42,581 nucleotides of DNA from an uncultured Erysipelotrichaceae bacterium. GTDB taxonomy: Bacteria; Bacillota_I; Bacilli_A; RFN20; CAG-826. The notes beneath the pieces are model-generated. The model ran no database searches. It had not been told where the DNA came from and saw only the letters and a list, made by a program, of their open reading frames with translations. Each line of letters starts with the position of its first letter. The stretch's first letter is position 1. Both the position numbers and the translations under genes were made by a program. The stretch lies in NCBI GenBank assembly GCA_902800355.1, contig CADCEE010000008.1, positions 1,084 through 43,664 on the forward strand, given 5' to 3'. This document shows positions 17,655 through 19,374 of the stretch, piece after piece.

Positions 17655-17660
17655 TATAAT
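17655..17660 (+). promoter_or_regulatory. -10 element for the FMN riboswitch transcript
   Basis: A perfect TATAAT sits just upstream of the riboswitch aptamer, within TACAATATAAT. The DNA further upstream is a low-complexity mix of A and T (TAATTAATAATTAATT), and no clear -35 at 17 bases can be chosen. Confidence 0.5.
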
Positions 17661-17663
17661 CAC

Positions 17664-17767
17664 TTCAGGGCAGCGAATTAACGCGACCGGCGGTATACCC
17701 CGCAAGCTATATGCATGAACTAGTGAAATTCTAGTGGCGACAGTAAAGTCTGGATGAGAGAAGTAAA
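17664..17767 (+). ncRNA. FMN riboswitch (RFN element) aptamer
   Basis: The conserved RFN blocks appear in order: TTCAGGGCAG, ACGCGACCGGCGGTA, CCCGCAAGC, TAGTGAAATTCTAGTGGCGACAGT and AAAGTCTGGATGAGAGAAG. Together they form the known FMN aptamer with its peripheral hairpins. It directly precedes a riboflavin-transporter-like gene, the expected target. Binding of FMN should favour the terminator at 17789-17815 and switch the gene off. Confidence 0.95.
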
Positions 17768-17788
17768 TAGAATGTATTTTCTATATGT

Positions 17789-17815: not shown

Positions 17816-18565
17816 ATGAAAAAAGAAAGAAGAAATGTTAAAGAAGTAATAACTAGAATGGCAACTTTAGCTACGCTATCAGCTTTAGGATTTGTCTTAA
17901 TGGCGTTTGCGCAGTTCCCATATCCTATGGCACCTTGGCTAAAGATTGAGATTAGTGAAATAGTCACTATTTTGGCATACGCATTATATGGCTTCCCTGG
18001 TGGTATTATTGTTGCGATTGTTAAAACTGCTTTAAATCTTGCATATCACGGATTATCTGGATTAGGTATTGGAGATCTAACTGCTTTATTCACTTCTGGA
18101 ATGTTTATCTTAGCGTTATTCTTAACTAGCCATGTCTTTAAATGGTTTAAAAAAGGCTTAGGGTTTAGAATCCTAGCCTATACTTTCTTAGCGGTATTTG
18201 TTTCTACCATCTTAACTATTGCTAATGCAATAGTGATTACTCCTTCTTATTTAACTGTTTTTGGTAGCAGTCCTCGCTTTGCAACTTGCTTTGAAGAAGG
18301 GATGATTCAAAATGTAACCGCCTACCTTACTAAAGATAGTACCTCTACTCATAATGCTTGGACTTATGTTGGAACGATTTCAACTATTTATTTACCTTTT
18401 AACCTTATAAAGACTGTAGCGTGTTGCGTTTTATATGAATTATTGTTCAACCGCTTGATCTTTGTTTTTATGCGTAAGTCTGAATTTTTCAGTAAATACT
18501 TTGTCGGTAATATTTTCACAAAAGAAACATCTGAAGAAGAAGTGACACTATCGGACGACAATTAA
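17816..18565 (+). CDS. ribU: ECF transporter S component, riboflavin type (RibU-like)
   Basis: Substrate-binding membrane subunit of an energy-coupling-factor vitamin transporter, predicted to bind riboflavin. The 249-residue protein has about six TM spans; the region PYPMAPWLKIEISEIVTILA followed by YGFPGGIIVAIVKTALNL matches the conserved RibU segment. The FMN riboswitch immediately upstream makes riboflavin the likely ligand. No ECF A/A'/T genes are in the window, so shared ECF modules must be encoded elsewhere. The first ATG follows the terminator T-tract directly; an ATG at 17858 is possible but has no better ribosome site. Confidence 0.9.
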   Translation: MKKERRNVKEVITRMATLATLSALGFVLMAFAQFPYPMAPWLKIEISEIVTILAYALYGFPGGIIVAIVKTALNLAYHGLSGLGIGDLTALFTSGMFILALFLTSHVFKWFKKGLGFRILAYTFLAVFVSTILTIANAIVITPSYLTVFGSSPRFATCFEEGMIQNVTAYLTKDSTSTHNAWTYVGTISTIYLPFNLIKTVACCVLYELLFNRLIFVFMRKSEFFSKYFVGNIFTKETSEEEVTLSDDN

Positions 18566-18589
18566 AAATGAACGCTTTTTACATTTTTG

Positions 18590-18618
18590 TTTACAAAAAG
18601 TTATTATTTTGATTTAAT
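18590..18618 (+). promoter_or_regulatory. Candidate promoter for an intergenic small RNA
   Basis: TTTACA (18590-18595) and TTTAAT (18613-18618) are spaced by 17 bases, placing a start site near 18625, just before the structured element. Confidence 0.45.
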
Positions 18619-18624
18619 ACAAGT

Positions 18625-18719
18625 AATGGTTCGCAGGTGAGACTGGATTAAGTCTGGCGAATCAATAATGTTACTGGATGCATATACGGCTTTAATTAGC
18701 GAGTTCTGCGTCCTTTTTT
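18625..18719 (+). ncRNA. Candidate structured small RNA or attenuator of unknown class
   Basis: Downstream of a plausible promoter, GGTTCGC (18628-18634) pairs with GCGAATC (18657-18663), enclosing an inner stem AGACT/AGTCT. After a 12-base linker, GGATGC (18676-18681) pairs with GCGTCC (18708-18713), again enclosing a small inner stem GGCT/AGC, and six T follow, as in an intrinsic terminator. This gives a self-contained transcript of about 95 bases. I compared it by memory with the TPP, THF, ZTP, preQ1, fluoride and guanidine riboswitches and none fits. No gene follows on this strand until 19463. It overlaps the 3' end of a minus-strand small ORF by a few codons. Confidence 0.5.
18688..18700 (+). 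repeat. 13-bp direct repeat, copy 1
   Basis: GGCTTTAATTAGC, identical to a second copy at 19055-19067. It forms the tip hairpin of the candidate RNA terminator and contains the stop codon of the minus-strand small ORF. Confidence 0.8.
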
Positions 18720-19031
18720 AATTCTTTTTATTTTCCTTTTGTCATTTTTGTCCCAAATCCATTTATATATTCTTTTATCAAACGATTTGTAATGATCAAC
18801 ATATATTCTGTTTTCTATATAAAAATTTTTATCTAGAGGGATATTTGGATTTGGGTGTCTATATAATGGCGTATTATTTTTAAAAAATGACACCAGTTTA
18901 TCTTTAGATAAGTTATTTTTTAACAAAGGGTCACTGTGCAATAATAGGTTTTTTCTTAAAATACCTTTTTGCTTAAATATATAGGAATAGTGTTTTCTTT
19001 TCTTGTTATATCTGAATTCGCTTTTTGATAT
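18696..19031 (-). CDS. Small basic ORF without a standard start codon (or decayed gene)
   Basis: An open minus-strand frame of 111 codons ending at TAA (18698-18696). A conventional start exists only at TTG 18941, giving 81 residues with no good ribosome site. Yet the frame upstream of that TTG looks coding (SKSEFRYNKKRKHYSYIF), and an AGAGGT site (19042-19037) is spaced six bases from an ATA codon at 19031, exactly where a start would be expected. The product is very basic and aromatic (RHPNPNIP, KWIWDKNDKRKIKRIKKG). I do not recognise the family. Possibilities are a gene using ATA or ATT as start, a gene with a mutated ATG, or a decayed cassette gene. It lies between two 13-bp direct repeats. 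Confidence 0.45.
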   Translation of the reverse strand: MSKSEFRYNKKRKHYSYIFKQKGILRKNLLLHSDPLLKNNLSKDKLVSFFKNNTPLYRHPNPNIPLDKNFYIENRIYVDHYKSFDKRIYKWIWDKNDKRKIKRIKKGRRTR

Positions 19032-19054
19032 AATTTACCTCTATTTATACACCT

Positions 19055-19067
19055 GGCTTTAATTAGC
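19055..19067 (+). repeat. 13-bp direct repeat, copy 2
   Basis: GGCTTTAATTAGC, identical to 18688-18700 and 367 bases from it. Here it forms a near-perfect palindrome GGCTTTAATTAGCC. It is followed on the + strand by CCCTAC...GTGGGTTTTTT, a second terminator-like hairpin ending near 19096. Confidence 0.8.
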
Positions 19068-19152
19068 CCTACACTATATACAGAGTGGGTTTTTTCGAAA
19101 ATTTGTAAAAAAAGTTTCTGAGATTGACTCAAAAACTTCATTATGCAAAGCA

Positions 19153-19187
19153 TAAAAAAACCAGATTTTTTGAGGATCTGGTTTTTC
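19153..19187 (-). terminator. Intrinsic terminator of the ferredoxin gene
   Basis: On the minus strand AACCAGAT, a loop, ATCTGGTT and a run of T, lying 8 bases after the ferredoxin stop codon. The left arm also begins with T on the other strand, so some bidirectional action is possible. Confidence 0.85.
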
Positions 19188-19194
19188 TATATCA

Positions 19195-19374
19195 TTACTC
19201 TTCTACAGAGATTGCACCAACTGGGCAGACACTAACGGCTTCTTCTTCGCCTTCTCCAGAAACAACTTCTGCTAATCCGCTATCGCCGATTGCGAAGTCA
19301 TCTGGGTATGTACCTGCGCAACATCCACAACCAATGCATAAGCTTTGATCGATTCTGACTTTCTTTTTCGCCAT
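19195..19374 (-). CDS. fer: Small ferredoxin, single 4Fe-4S cluster
   Basis: A 59-residue acidic ferredoxin, found by reading the minus strand from ATG 19374 (strong AGGAGG site upstream) to TAA 19195. It starts MAKKKVRIDQSLCIGCGCC; the cluster ligands are C13, C16 and C19, plus C50 in SVCPVGAISVEE. Cys18 is an extra cysteine not needed for the cluster. The size and the C-terminal CPVGAI are typical of Firmicutes low-potential electron carriers. It is a single-gene unit, with a -10-like TATAAT upstream on the minus strand and its own terminator; the divergent neighbour is the cytidylyltransferase gene. Its redox partner cannot be told from the context. Confidence 0.93.
   Translation of the reverse strand: MAKKKVRIDQSLCIGCGCCAGTYPDDFAIGDSGLAEVVSGEGEEEAVSVCPVGAISVEE

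What the first reader, a model, noticed from the sequence alone, without database searches (positions are those of the whole stretch)
18688..19067. Small minus-strand ORF bounded by a 13-bp direct repeat
GGCTTTAATTAGC occurs at both ends of a 367-base segment that holds little except a basic 111-codon frame. Removing one repeat unit would join the upstream RNA element directly to CCCTACACTATATAC...GTGGGTTTTTT, itself a terminator-like hairpin. This fits insertion of a small cassette into an older structured RNA, or recombination at the repeat.
Basis: partly seen in the sequence, partly recalled or inferred. Interest (0 to 1): 0.55.

Follow-up and report, generated by a model that had tools for sequence, protein, structure and literature searches.

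The report
Small toxin-shaped gene with uptake promoter
A small gene for a toxin-shaped protein, behind the same promoter that precedes this bacterium's DNA-uptake and recombination genes, sits at a spot where related species carry a different gene or nothing.

Summary
The 13-bp repeat is real (18688-18700, 19055-19067) and has no other exact copy in the 1.14-Mb genome. But 13-bp pairs this close are frequent in this window, and the repeat does not mark the insert's ends. The "terminator-like hairpin" beside its right copy is, on the minus strand, a promoter block found at 68 sites in 8 of 19 genomes of the genus and at 0 in the reversed control. It precedes recA, dprA, comEA-comEC, the radC operon and the comFA-like locus, and many small accessory genes, so it looks like a competence (DNA-uptake) promoter. 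The minus-strand frame is one such accessory gene: 111 codons, ATA where all 15 intact relatives have ATG, predicted MazF/CcdB-like fold. The left "RNA element" is a hairpin and border also found behind another MazF-like gene in arrays before comFA. Between ferredoxin and its neighbour, 5 of 18 genomes carry promoter plus one of three cargoes, 11 are empty, one keeps a remnant, one has another gene. Insertion is thus real, but the unit is promoter + gene + 3' hairpin; no single-repeat empty site was found. Regulator, mobility and protein activity are inferred or unknown.

The parts
19067..19117 (-).
   Evidence: 0 mismatches to AAAAANNCACTCTNTATATARTGNRGG; 68 sites in 8 of 19 genomes of the genus, 0 in the reversed control; block edges; neighbouring genes
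19055..19067 (.). right copy of the 13-bp repeat, in the 5' leader just after the promoter
18696..19031 (-). small basic gene, 111 codons plus TAA; ATA (19029-19031) where the 15 intact relatives have ATG; predicted MazF/CcdB-like fold
18688..18700 (.). left copy of the 13-bp repeat; contains the gene's stop codon and lies in the loop of its 3' hairpin
18676..18719 (+). hairpin GGATGCA...TGCGTCC plus T run; the broken G011 copy has GGATGTA...TACGTCC, a change on both sides of one pair
   Evidence: DNA matches over 18604-18664 in G015 and G009; contexts; RNA fold z -3.28
18607..18619 (-). border TATTAAATCAAAA, identical to the sequence that leads into several comFA copies in the arrays

Best explanation
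The segment is an accessory gene cassette on the minus strand behind a competence-regulon promoter. SHOWN by sequence: the block at 19067-19117 is the same promoter block that precedes recA, dprA, comEA-comEC, the radC operon and the comFA-like locus in this genus. The gene behind it belongs to a family found here only in uncultured Bacilli, many from ruminant stomachs, and is predicted to fold like MazF/CcdB proteins. The place beside ferredoxin is filled in some species, with different genes behind the same promoter, and empty in others. The left hairpin and border match the 3' ends of similar cassettes at comFA. INFERRED: when the cell turns on DNA uptake, this promoter fires and the small protein is made together with the uptake machinery; the cassette arrived as promoter + gene + 3' hairpin, probably by recombination of DNA taken up. 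The present copy may be decaying (ATA start; T/S at 32 replaced by H, near-invariant K34 by D). The 13-bp repeat is incidental or a by-product.
For: Promoter: 15-mer core at 34 sites in 7 of 19 genomes against 2 in the reversed control; longer pattern 68 sites in 8 of 19 against 0. Genes behind 56 distinct sites held, sorted by my own regular expressions: recA 6, dprA 3, comEA 3, radC operon 2, DUF1016 6, ORF6N 2, other small basic proteins 6, short hydrophobic peptides 12, window gene 1, unclassified or cut 15. Over their Pfam cut-offs: RecA, DprA (DNA_processg_A), CinA, RadC, ORF6N, DUF1016_N, SLBB for comEA, ComEC domain in 16 of 19 genomes. Own genome: P_com, DUF1016 gene, comFA-like gene, ComF-type gene in this order. 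Hotspot. Gene family: 17 GTDB loci, directly behind a radC-like gene in 4. Fold: pLDDT 86.4; the 50 rows listed are MazF-type, CcdB, CptN or called only toxin/endoribonuclease, best Z 7.8, rmsd 3.2, 90 aligned. A second cargo family, with a poorer model, lists the same class in 49 of 50 rows, best Z 7.4. Mismatches to the G011 copy by codon position: 15, 8, 25 of 64, 63, 65.
Against: No expression data; the competence label rests on the gene set. NCBIfam matches for ComEC/Rec2, ComF and the ComEA-like family are below their curated cut-offs, and the comFA-like gene matches only general helicase models; its name rests on its zinc-finger-like start and the ComF-type gene behind it (partly recalled). 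No regulator was found: ComK in 0 of 19 genomes, one sigma-70 region 2 hit in the own genome. 11 of 19 genomes lack the motif as written, and many sites precede accessory genes. The ATA start and lost residues may mean a dying gene; copies in G010, G011 and G016 have broken frames. Z stays under 8, Foldseek alone was weak (best MazF E 1.2; PemK-like protein E 0.044 in BFVD), and no Pfam, NCBIfam, PHROG or PADLOC family matched the protein or its relatives at E 0.01 or better. The genome is a draft, so the ATA cannot be checked against reads.
Confidence: 0.77

Rival explanations
1. The 13-bp direct repeat is the footprint of an insertion or excision event (target-site duplication or cassette core), so the 367-bp segment between the repeats is the mobile unit.
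For: Exact copies only here in the genome; each copy lies near an end of the gene; a similar GGGCTTTATTAGC follows the promoter at this place in G011 and G001.
Against: No single-repeat site in the stretches held for 17 relatives; the insertion difference includes the promoter and the left hairpin; the 3' copy exists with the gene elsewhere without a partner; six such repeat pairs in the window.
Confidence: 0.08
2. The dispersed block is an SOS (LexA-type) promoter/operator rather than a competence one; the cargoes are damage-induced genes.
For: recA and small toxic-peptide-like genes are typical SOS targets (recalled); several own-genome sites hold a short palindrome CACT-N8-AGTG.
Against: No CGAAC-N4-GTTCG box in 55 contexts; dprA, comEA-comEC, comFA and radC are competence rather than SOS genes; the palindrome is not kept in congeners. 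LexA itself was not searched for.
Confidence: 0.12
3. The frame is no longer a working gene: a pseudogene remnant between two convergent genes.
For: ATA start, K34D and T/S32H, broken frames in relatives of the same genus.
Against: Open over all 111 codons, perfect promoter match, ribosome-binding-like AGAGGT 5 bases before the ATA, codon-position bias against the G011 copy.
Confidence: 0.3

Closest known systems
Streptococcal late competence (ComX/CIN-box) regulon
   Same: Overlapping gene set behind one promoter type: in S. suis ComEA, ComEC, RadC, ComFA, ComFC, DprA, cinA and recA are under ComX, and a fratricin-like gene and a putative bacteriocin operon are CIN-box regulated too (PMC5167698, passages seen).
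   Different: No CIN-box as a rule (TACGAA or its complement in 3 of 55 contexts); the motif is T-tract, A-tract, CCACTCTTTATATAATG; accessory genes are MazF-like proteins, DUF1016, ORF6N and short hydrophobic peptides.
PemK/MazF and CcdB toxins
   Same: Predicted fold and size.
   Different: No sequence-family match, no antitoxin gene in the unit, very basic, under the competence-type promoter; activity untested.
Integron gene cassettes
   Same: At comFA: a promoter followed by several small genes, many with their own 3' hairpin, content differing between species.
   Different: Each unit also carries up to about 105 codons of comFA; no integrase was sought; as single-stranded DNA most hairpins are no stronger than chance.

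Membership tests
Competence regulon | one promoter motif shared by DNA-uptake and recombination genes (recA, dprA, comEA-comEC, radC, comFA) | tested here: met
   gene identities; comFA by position and recalled features
Competence regulon | induction during competence | not testable with these tools
   no transcriptome held
ComX/CIN-box regulon | TACGAA-type CIN-box in the promoters | tested here: not met
   3 of 55 contexts of up to 190 bases contain TACGAA or TTCGTA
ComX/CIN-box regulon | competence sigma factor encoded | tested here: inconclusive
   one Sigma70_r2 match in the own genome; 2 or 3 in some congeners; a diverged sigma could be missed
ComK regulon | ComK protein encoded | tested here: not met
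   0 of 19 genomes; among 14 controls it rings in B. subtilis only
SOS (LexA/DinR) regulon | CGAAC-N4-GTTCG operator | tested here: not met
   0 of 55 contexts
SOS (LexA/DinR) regulon | LexA protein encoded | not tested
PemK/MazF superfamily | MazF/CcdB-type fold | tested here: met
   predicted model only: best Z 7.8 over 90 residues, the 50 listed rows all of this class; Z is under 8, and Foldseek alone was weak
PemK/MazF superfamily | sequence-profile membership | tested here: not met
   no Pfam or NCBIfam match at E 0.01 or better; PDB profile search gave one unrelated chain at E 0.38
PemK/MazF toxin-antitoxin system | antitoxin gene beside the toxin | tested here: not met
   no second ORF of 60 aa or more that could be one lies in the unit; shorter ones were not examined
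PemK/MazF toxin-antitoxin system | RNase or growth-arrest activity | not testable with these tools
   needs expression
Integron cassette | integron integrase | not tested
Integron cassette | structured attC-like site behind each gene | tested here: inconclusive
   single-strand DNA folds of 8 stretches: z from +0.24 to -4.28, two below -2
Transposon with target-site duplication | single copy of the repeat at the empty site | tested here: not met
   absent from the stretches held for 17 relatives, up to 2 mismatches

The most novel reading that the evidence does not exclude
This genus has a cassette-exchange system tied to natural competence: small genes, at least two families of them MazF-like in predicted fold, are captured directly behind competence promoters. 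At comFA they form tandem arrays in which a unit's gene and hairpin are followed by a fresh copy of the first 105 or so codons of comFA, joined at a fixed point in the Walker A motif, so that the uptake gene is restored each time. The window holds a single such cassette that has moved to another competence promoter.
Probability: 0.3. Interest if true: 0.85.

Novelty: new variant of a known kind. Interest (0 to 1): 0.6.

Why it matters
It gives a testable promoter signature for natural competence in an uncultured clade of Bacilli in which ComK was not found and the CIN-box is not the shared motif. It suggests that toxin-fold genes ride under the uptake promoter and differ between species at fixed spots, one of them the uptake gene comFA itself. 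If competence recruits its own cargo this way, DNA uptake and cassette acquisition would be directly coupled.

Tried and rejected
Rfam: only the FMN riboswitch upstream of the ECF transporter gene reached a gathering score; at relaxed thresholds the 14 matches in 18500-19250 stayed far below their cut-offs. A plus-strand RNA split by the insert: rejected, because the left hairpin occurs with its border behind other cargo genes in comFA arrays and the right hairpin is a minus-strand promoter. The left hairpins could still end the transcript of the convergent transporter gene; I did not test that.

A palindromic operator as the conserved feature: complementarity around the best centre averages only 0.51 over 54 aligned sites, so I call the block a promoter, not a proven operator. 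An antisense or type III antitoxin RNA: no evidence beyond position; a type III toxin (CptN) is among the fold matches at Z 5.7 and 6.3. A pattern search for the left hairpin with 2 mismatches in 96 genomes gave about as many reversed-control hits in many genomes, so its counts were not used.

Mobile replicons: no relative of the protein in IMG/VR or in the phage collection, no match of the segment in the plasmid collection, no promoter or array-junction pattern in IMG/VR. Profile comparison did not join the two cargo families by sequence (probability 6.4). The short hydrophobic peptides are called Hol_Tox-like from memory; the one peptide tested had no Pfam match. Searches for print; among the papers listed (at most 15 per search) I saw none on this promoter, on comFA cassette arrays or on this protein family. 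Only PMC5167698 was looked into further, in passages.

Full report
Observation. The 13-mer is present twice as described, and no other exact copy exists in the 1.14-Mb genome. Six direct-repeat pairs of 13 bp or more within 400 bp exist in this window against a mean of 0.8 in 40 Markov sequences, so the pair by itself proves nothing. The minus-strand frame spans 18696-19031; read from ATA it has 111 codons.

What the right-hand hairpin is. A DNA search of 96 genomes with 18560-19200 showed that 19067-19117 is a dispersed block: three more copies in the own genome and many in congeners, most with a sharp edge at or within a few bases of 19067. On the minus strand these blocks lie just upstream of genes: recA (with CinA before it) and dprA in the own genome, short hydrophobic peptides (Hol_Tox-like, a label from memory), and in congeners a radC operon, ORF6N and DUF1016 proteins. 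The pattern AAAAANNCACTCTNTATATARTGNRGG with up to 3 mismatches has 68 sites in 8 of 19 genomes of the genus (own included) and none in the reversed-pattern control; a 15-mer core has 34 sites in 7 of 19 against 2 in the control. Further sites precede comEA-comEC and the comFA-like locus; the own comEA has a variant that I read by eye. ComEC passes the Pfam cut-off in 16 of 19 genomes. NCBIfam finds ComEC/Rec2, ComF and a ComEA-like family, all below their curated cut-offs, and only general helicase models for the comFA-like gene, whose name therefore rests on its position before a ComF-type gene and on recalled features. The consensus from 56 sites is T-tract, A-tract, CCACTCTTTATATAATG, then G-rich. 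There is no TTGAC-type -35, no LexA/DinR box, and TACGAA or its complement occurs in 3 of 55 contexts. ComK is absent from 19 of 19 genomes; the own genome has one sigma-70 region 2 match. The gene set overlaps largely with the streptococcal late competence regulon (PMC5167698, passages), so I read the block as a competence promoter with an unknown regulator. 11 of the 19 genomes lack the motif as written; G016 has a variant of it at 7 sites.

What the gene is. Relatives of the frame were found in 14 of 115 genomes (own included) at E 0.01 or better, five of them doubtful, and at 17 loci in GTDB r220. The titles there are uncultured Bacilli, Bacillales or Erysipelotrichaceae; several name goat, water deer, water buffalo or yak stomachs. 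Fifteen of the 17 are intact and start with ATG; L156 is frameshifted, and L157 is decayed and also has ATA. In four loci the gene directly follows a radC-like gene (L145, L146, L154, L155; Pfam tested one of them). The window copy lacks the T/S at 32 and the near-invariant K at 34. AlphaFold2 gives pLDDT 86.4. The 50 rows listed by the structural aligner are MazF-type proteins (among them YdcE and MoxT, recalled as MazF homologues), CcdB, CptN, or entries called only toxin or endoribonuclease; best Z 7.8. The tool warns that Z below 8 may be only a common arrangement, and Foldseek alone was weak. A different cargo family from the comFA arrays, predicted separately with a poorer model (pLDDT 77.5 for the best of five, 41 or less for the others), lists MazF, CcdB, Kid, CptN or toxin entries in 49 of 50 rows, best Z 7.4. 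I take the fold as likely and the activity as unknown.

What the left-hand element is. The hairpin at 18627-18664 with its border 18607-18619 matches DNA in G015 and G009. There, and in G005, G008, G012 and G013, the element follows a 107-codon ORF of that second family, and outside G012 it leads into a copy of comFA. G015 has a further copy behind a different ORF that does not lead straight into comFA. The second hairpin, 18676-18719, overlaps the gene's stop codon and travels with it: the broken G011 copy at another locus, the second gene behind its promoter, keeps it with a change on both sides of one pair.

The insertion. Of 18 genomes in which the ferredoxin gene was found (own included; none in G018), 5 carry promoter plus cargo: own, this gene; G008 and G014, a short hydrophobic peptide; G011 and G001, ORF6N (the promoter of G008 is seen with the 15-mer, not with the longer pattern). 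Eleven have the ferredoxin gene directly beside the neighbouring membrane-protein gene (G002, G004, G005, G006, G007, G010, G012, G013, G015, G016, G017); that neighbour is ribU-like or another membrane protein, judged by eye. G003 keeps a remnant of a peptide gene, and G009 has a different gene (G005 read by eye). None of the 17 relatives shows a single 13-mer at the junction.

The comFA arrays. All 19 genomes have one long comFA match. Eight also have 5' fragments of comFA that reach codon 90-105 (G001, G005, G008, G009, G014, G015, G016, G018), and G003, G006 and G007 have shorter remnants. In the best fragments the homology stops at the same point of the Walker A motif, followed by a shared stretch ending in a ribosome-binding-like sequence and a small ORF. 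G001 has the promoter followed by four units of comFA fragment plus small ORF and then the full comFA; G004 and G017 have comFA without cargo between it and the preceding gene. This supports repeated, ordered acquisition, but homologous recombination through the comFA copies would explain it without a new recombinase; hence the modest probability of the boldest reading.

Limits. All genomes are drafts. The promoter classes rest on my regular expressions, and 15 of 56 sites stay unclassified or cut. Regulator, expression, mobility and protein activity were not shown.

Noticed in passing
window 17657-17769 (+): FMN riboswitch (82 bits) upstream of an ECF transporter gene (17816-18565), hence the name ribU.
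   Followed up: no
L076, L084, L145, L146, L154: A conserved peptide of 60-69 aa (MKYELLSDSEMEQQVSGEALTLTAVMAVL...GGWKFSW) directly before radC, behind the competence-type promoter in L076 and L084; looks like a bacteriocin or signal-peptide precursor.
   Followed up: partly
L009, L013, L015, L042, L177, L181: Short hydrophobic Hol_Tox-like peptides (label from memory) with long leaders behind the same promoter.
   Followed up: partly
L296, L297, L300, L301, L302: Small ORFs separated by comFA 5' fragments, most of which end at one fixed point in the Walker A motif.
   Followed up: partly
L157: A decayed relative of the window gene that also has ATA in place of the start codon.
   Followed up: no
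L143, L147, L150, L151, L153: In other genera the same gene family has a similar T-tract/A-tract upstream region, in some ending in an inverted repeat such as CCTCC...GGAGG that includes the ribosome-binding site; possibly a diverged form of the same promoter.
   Followed up: no
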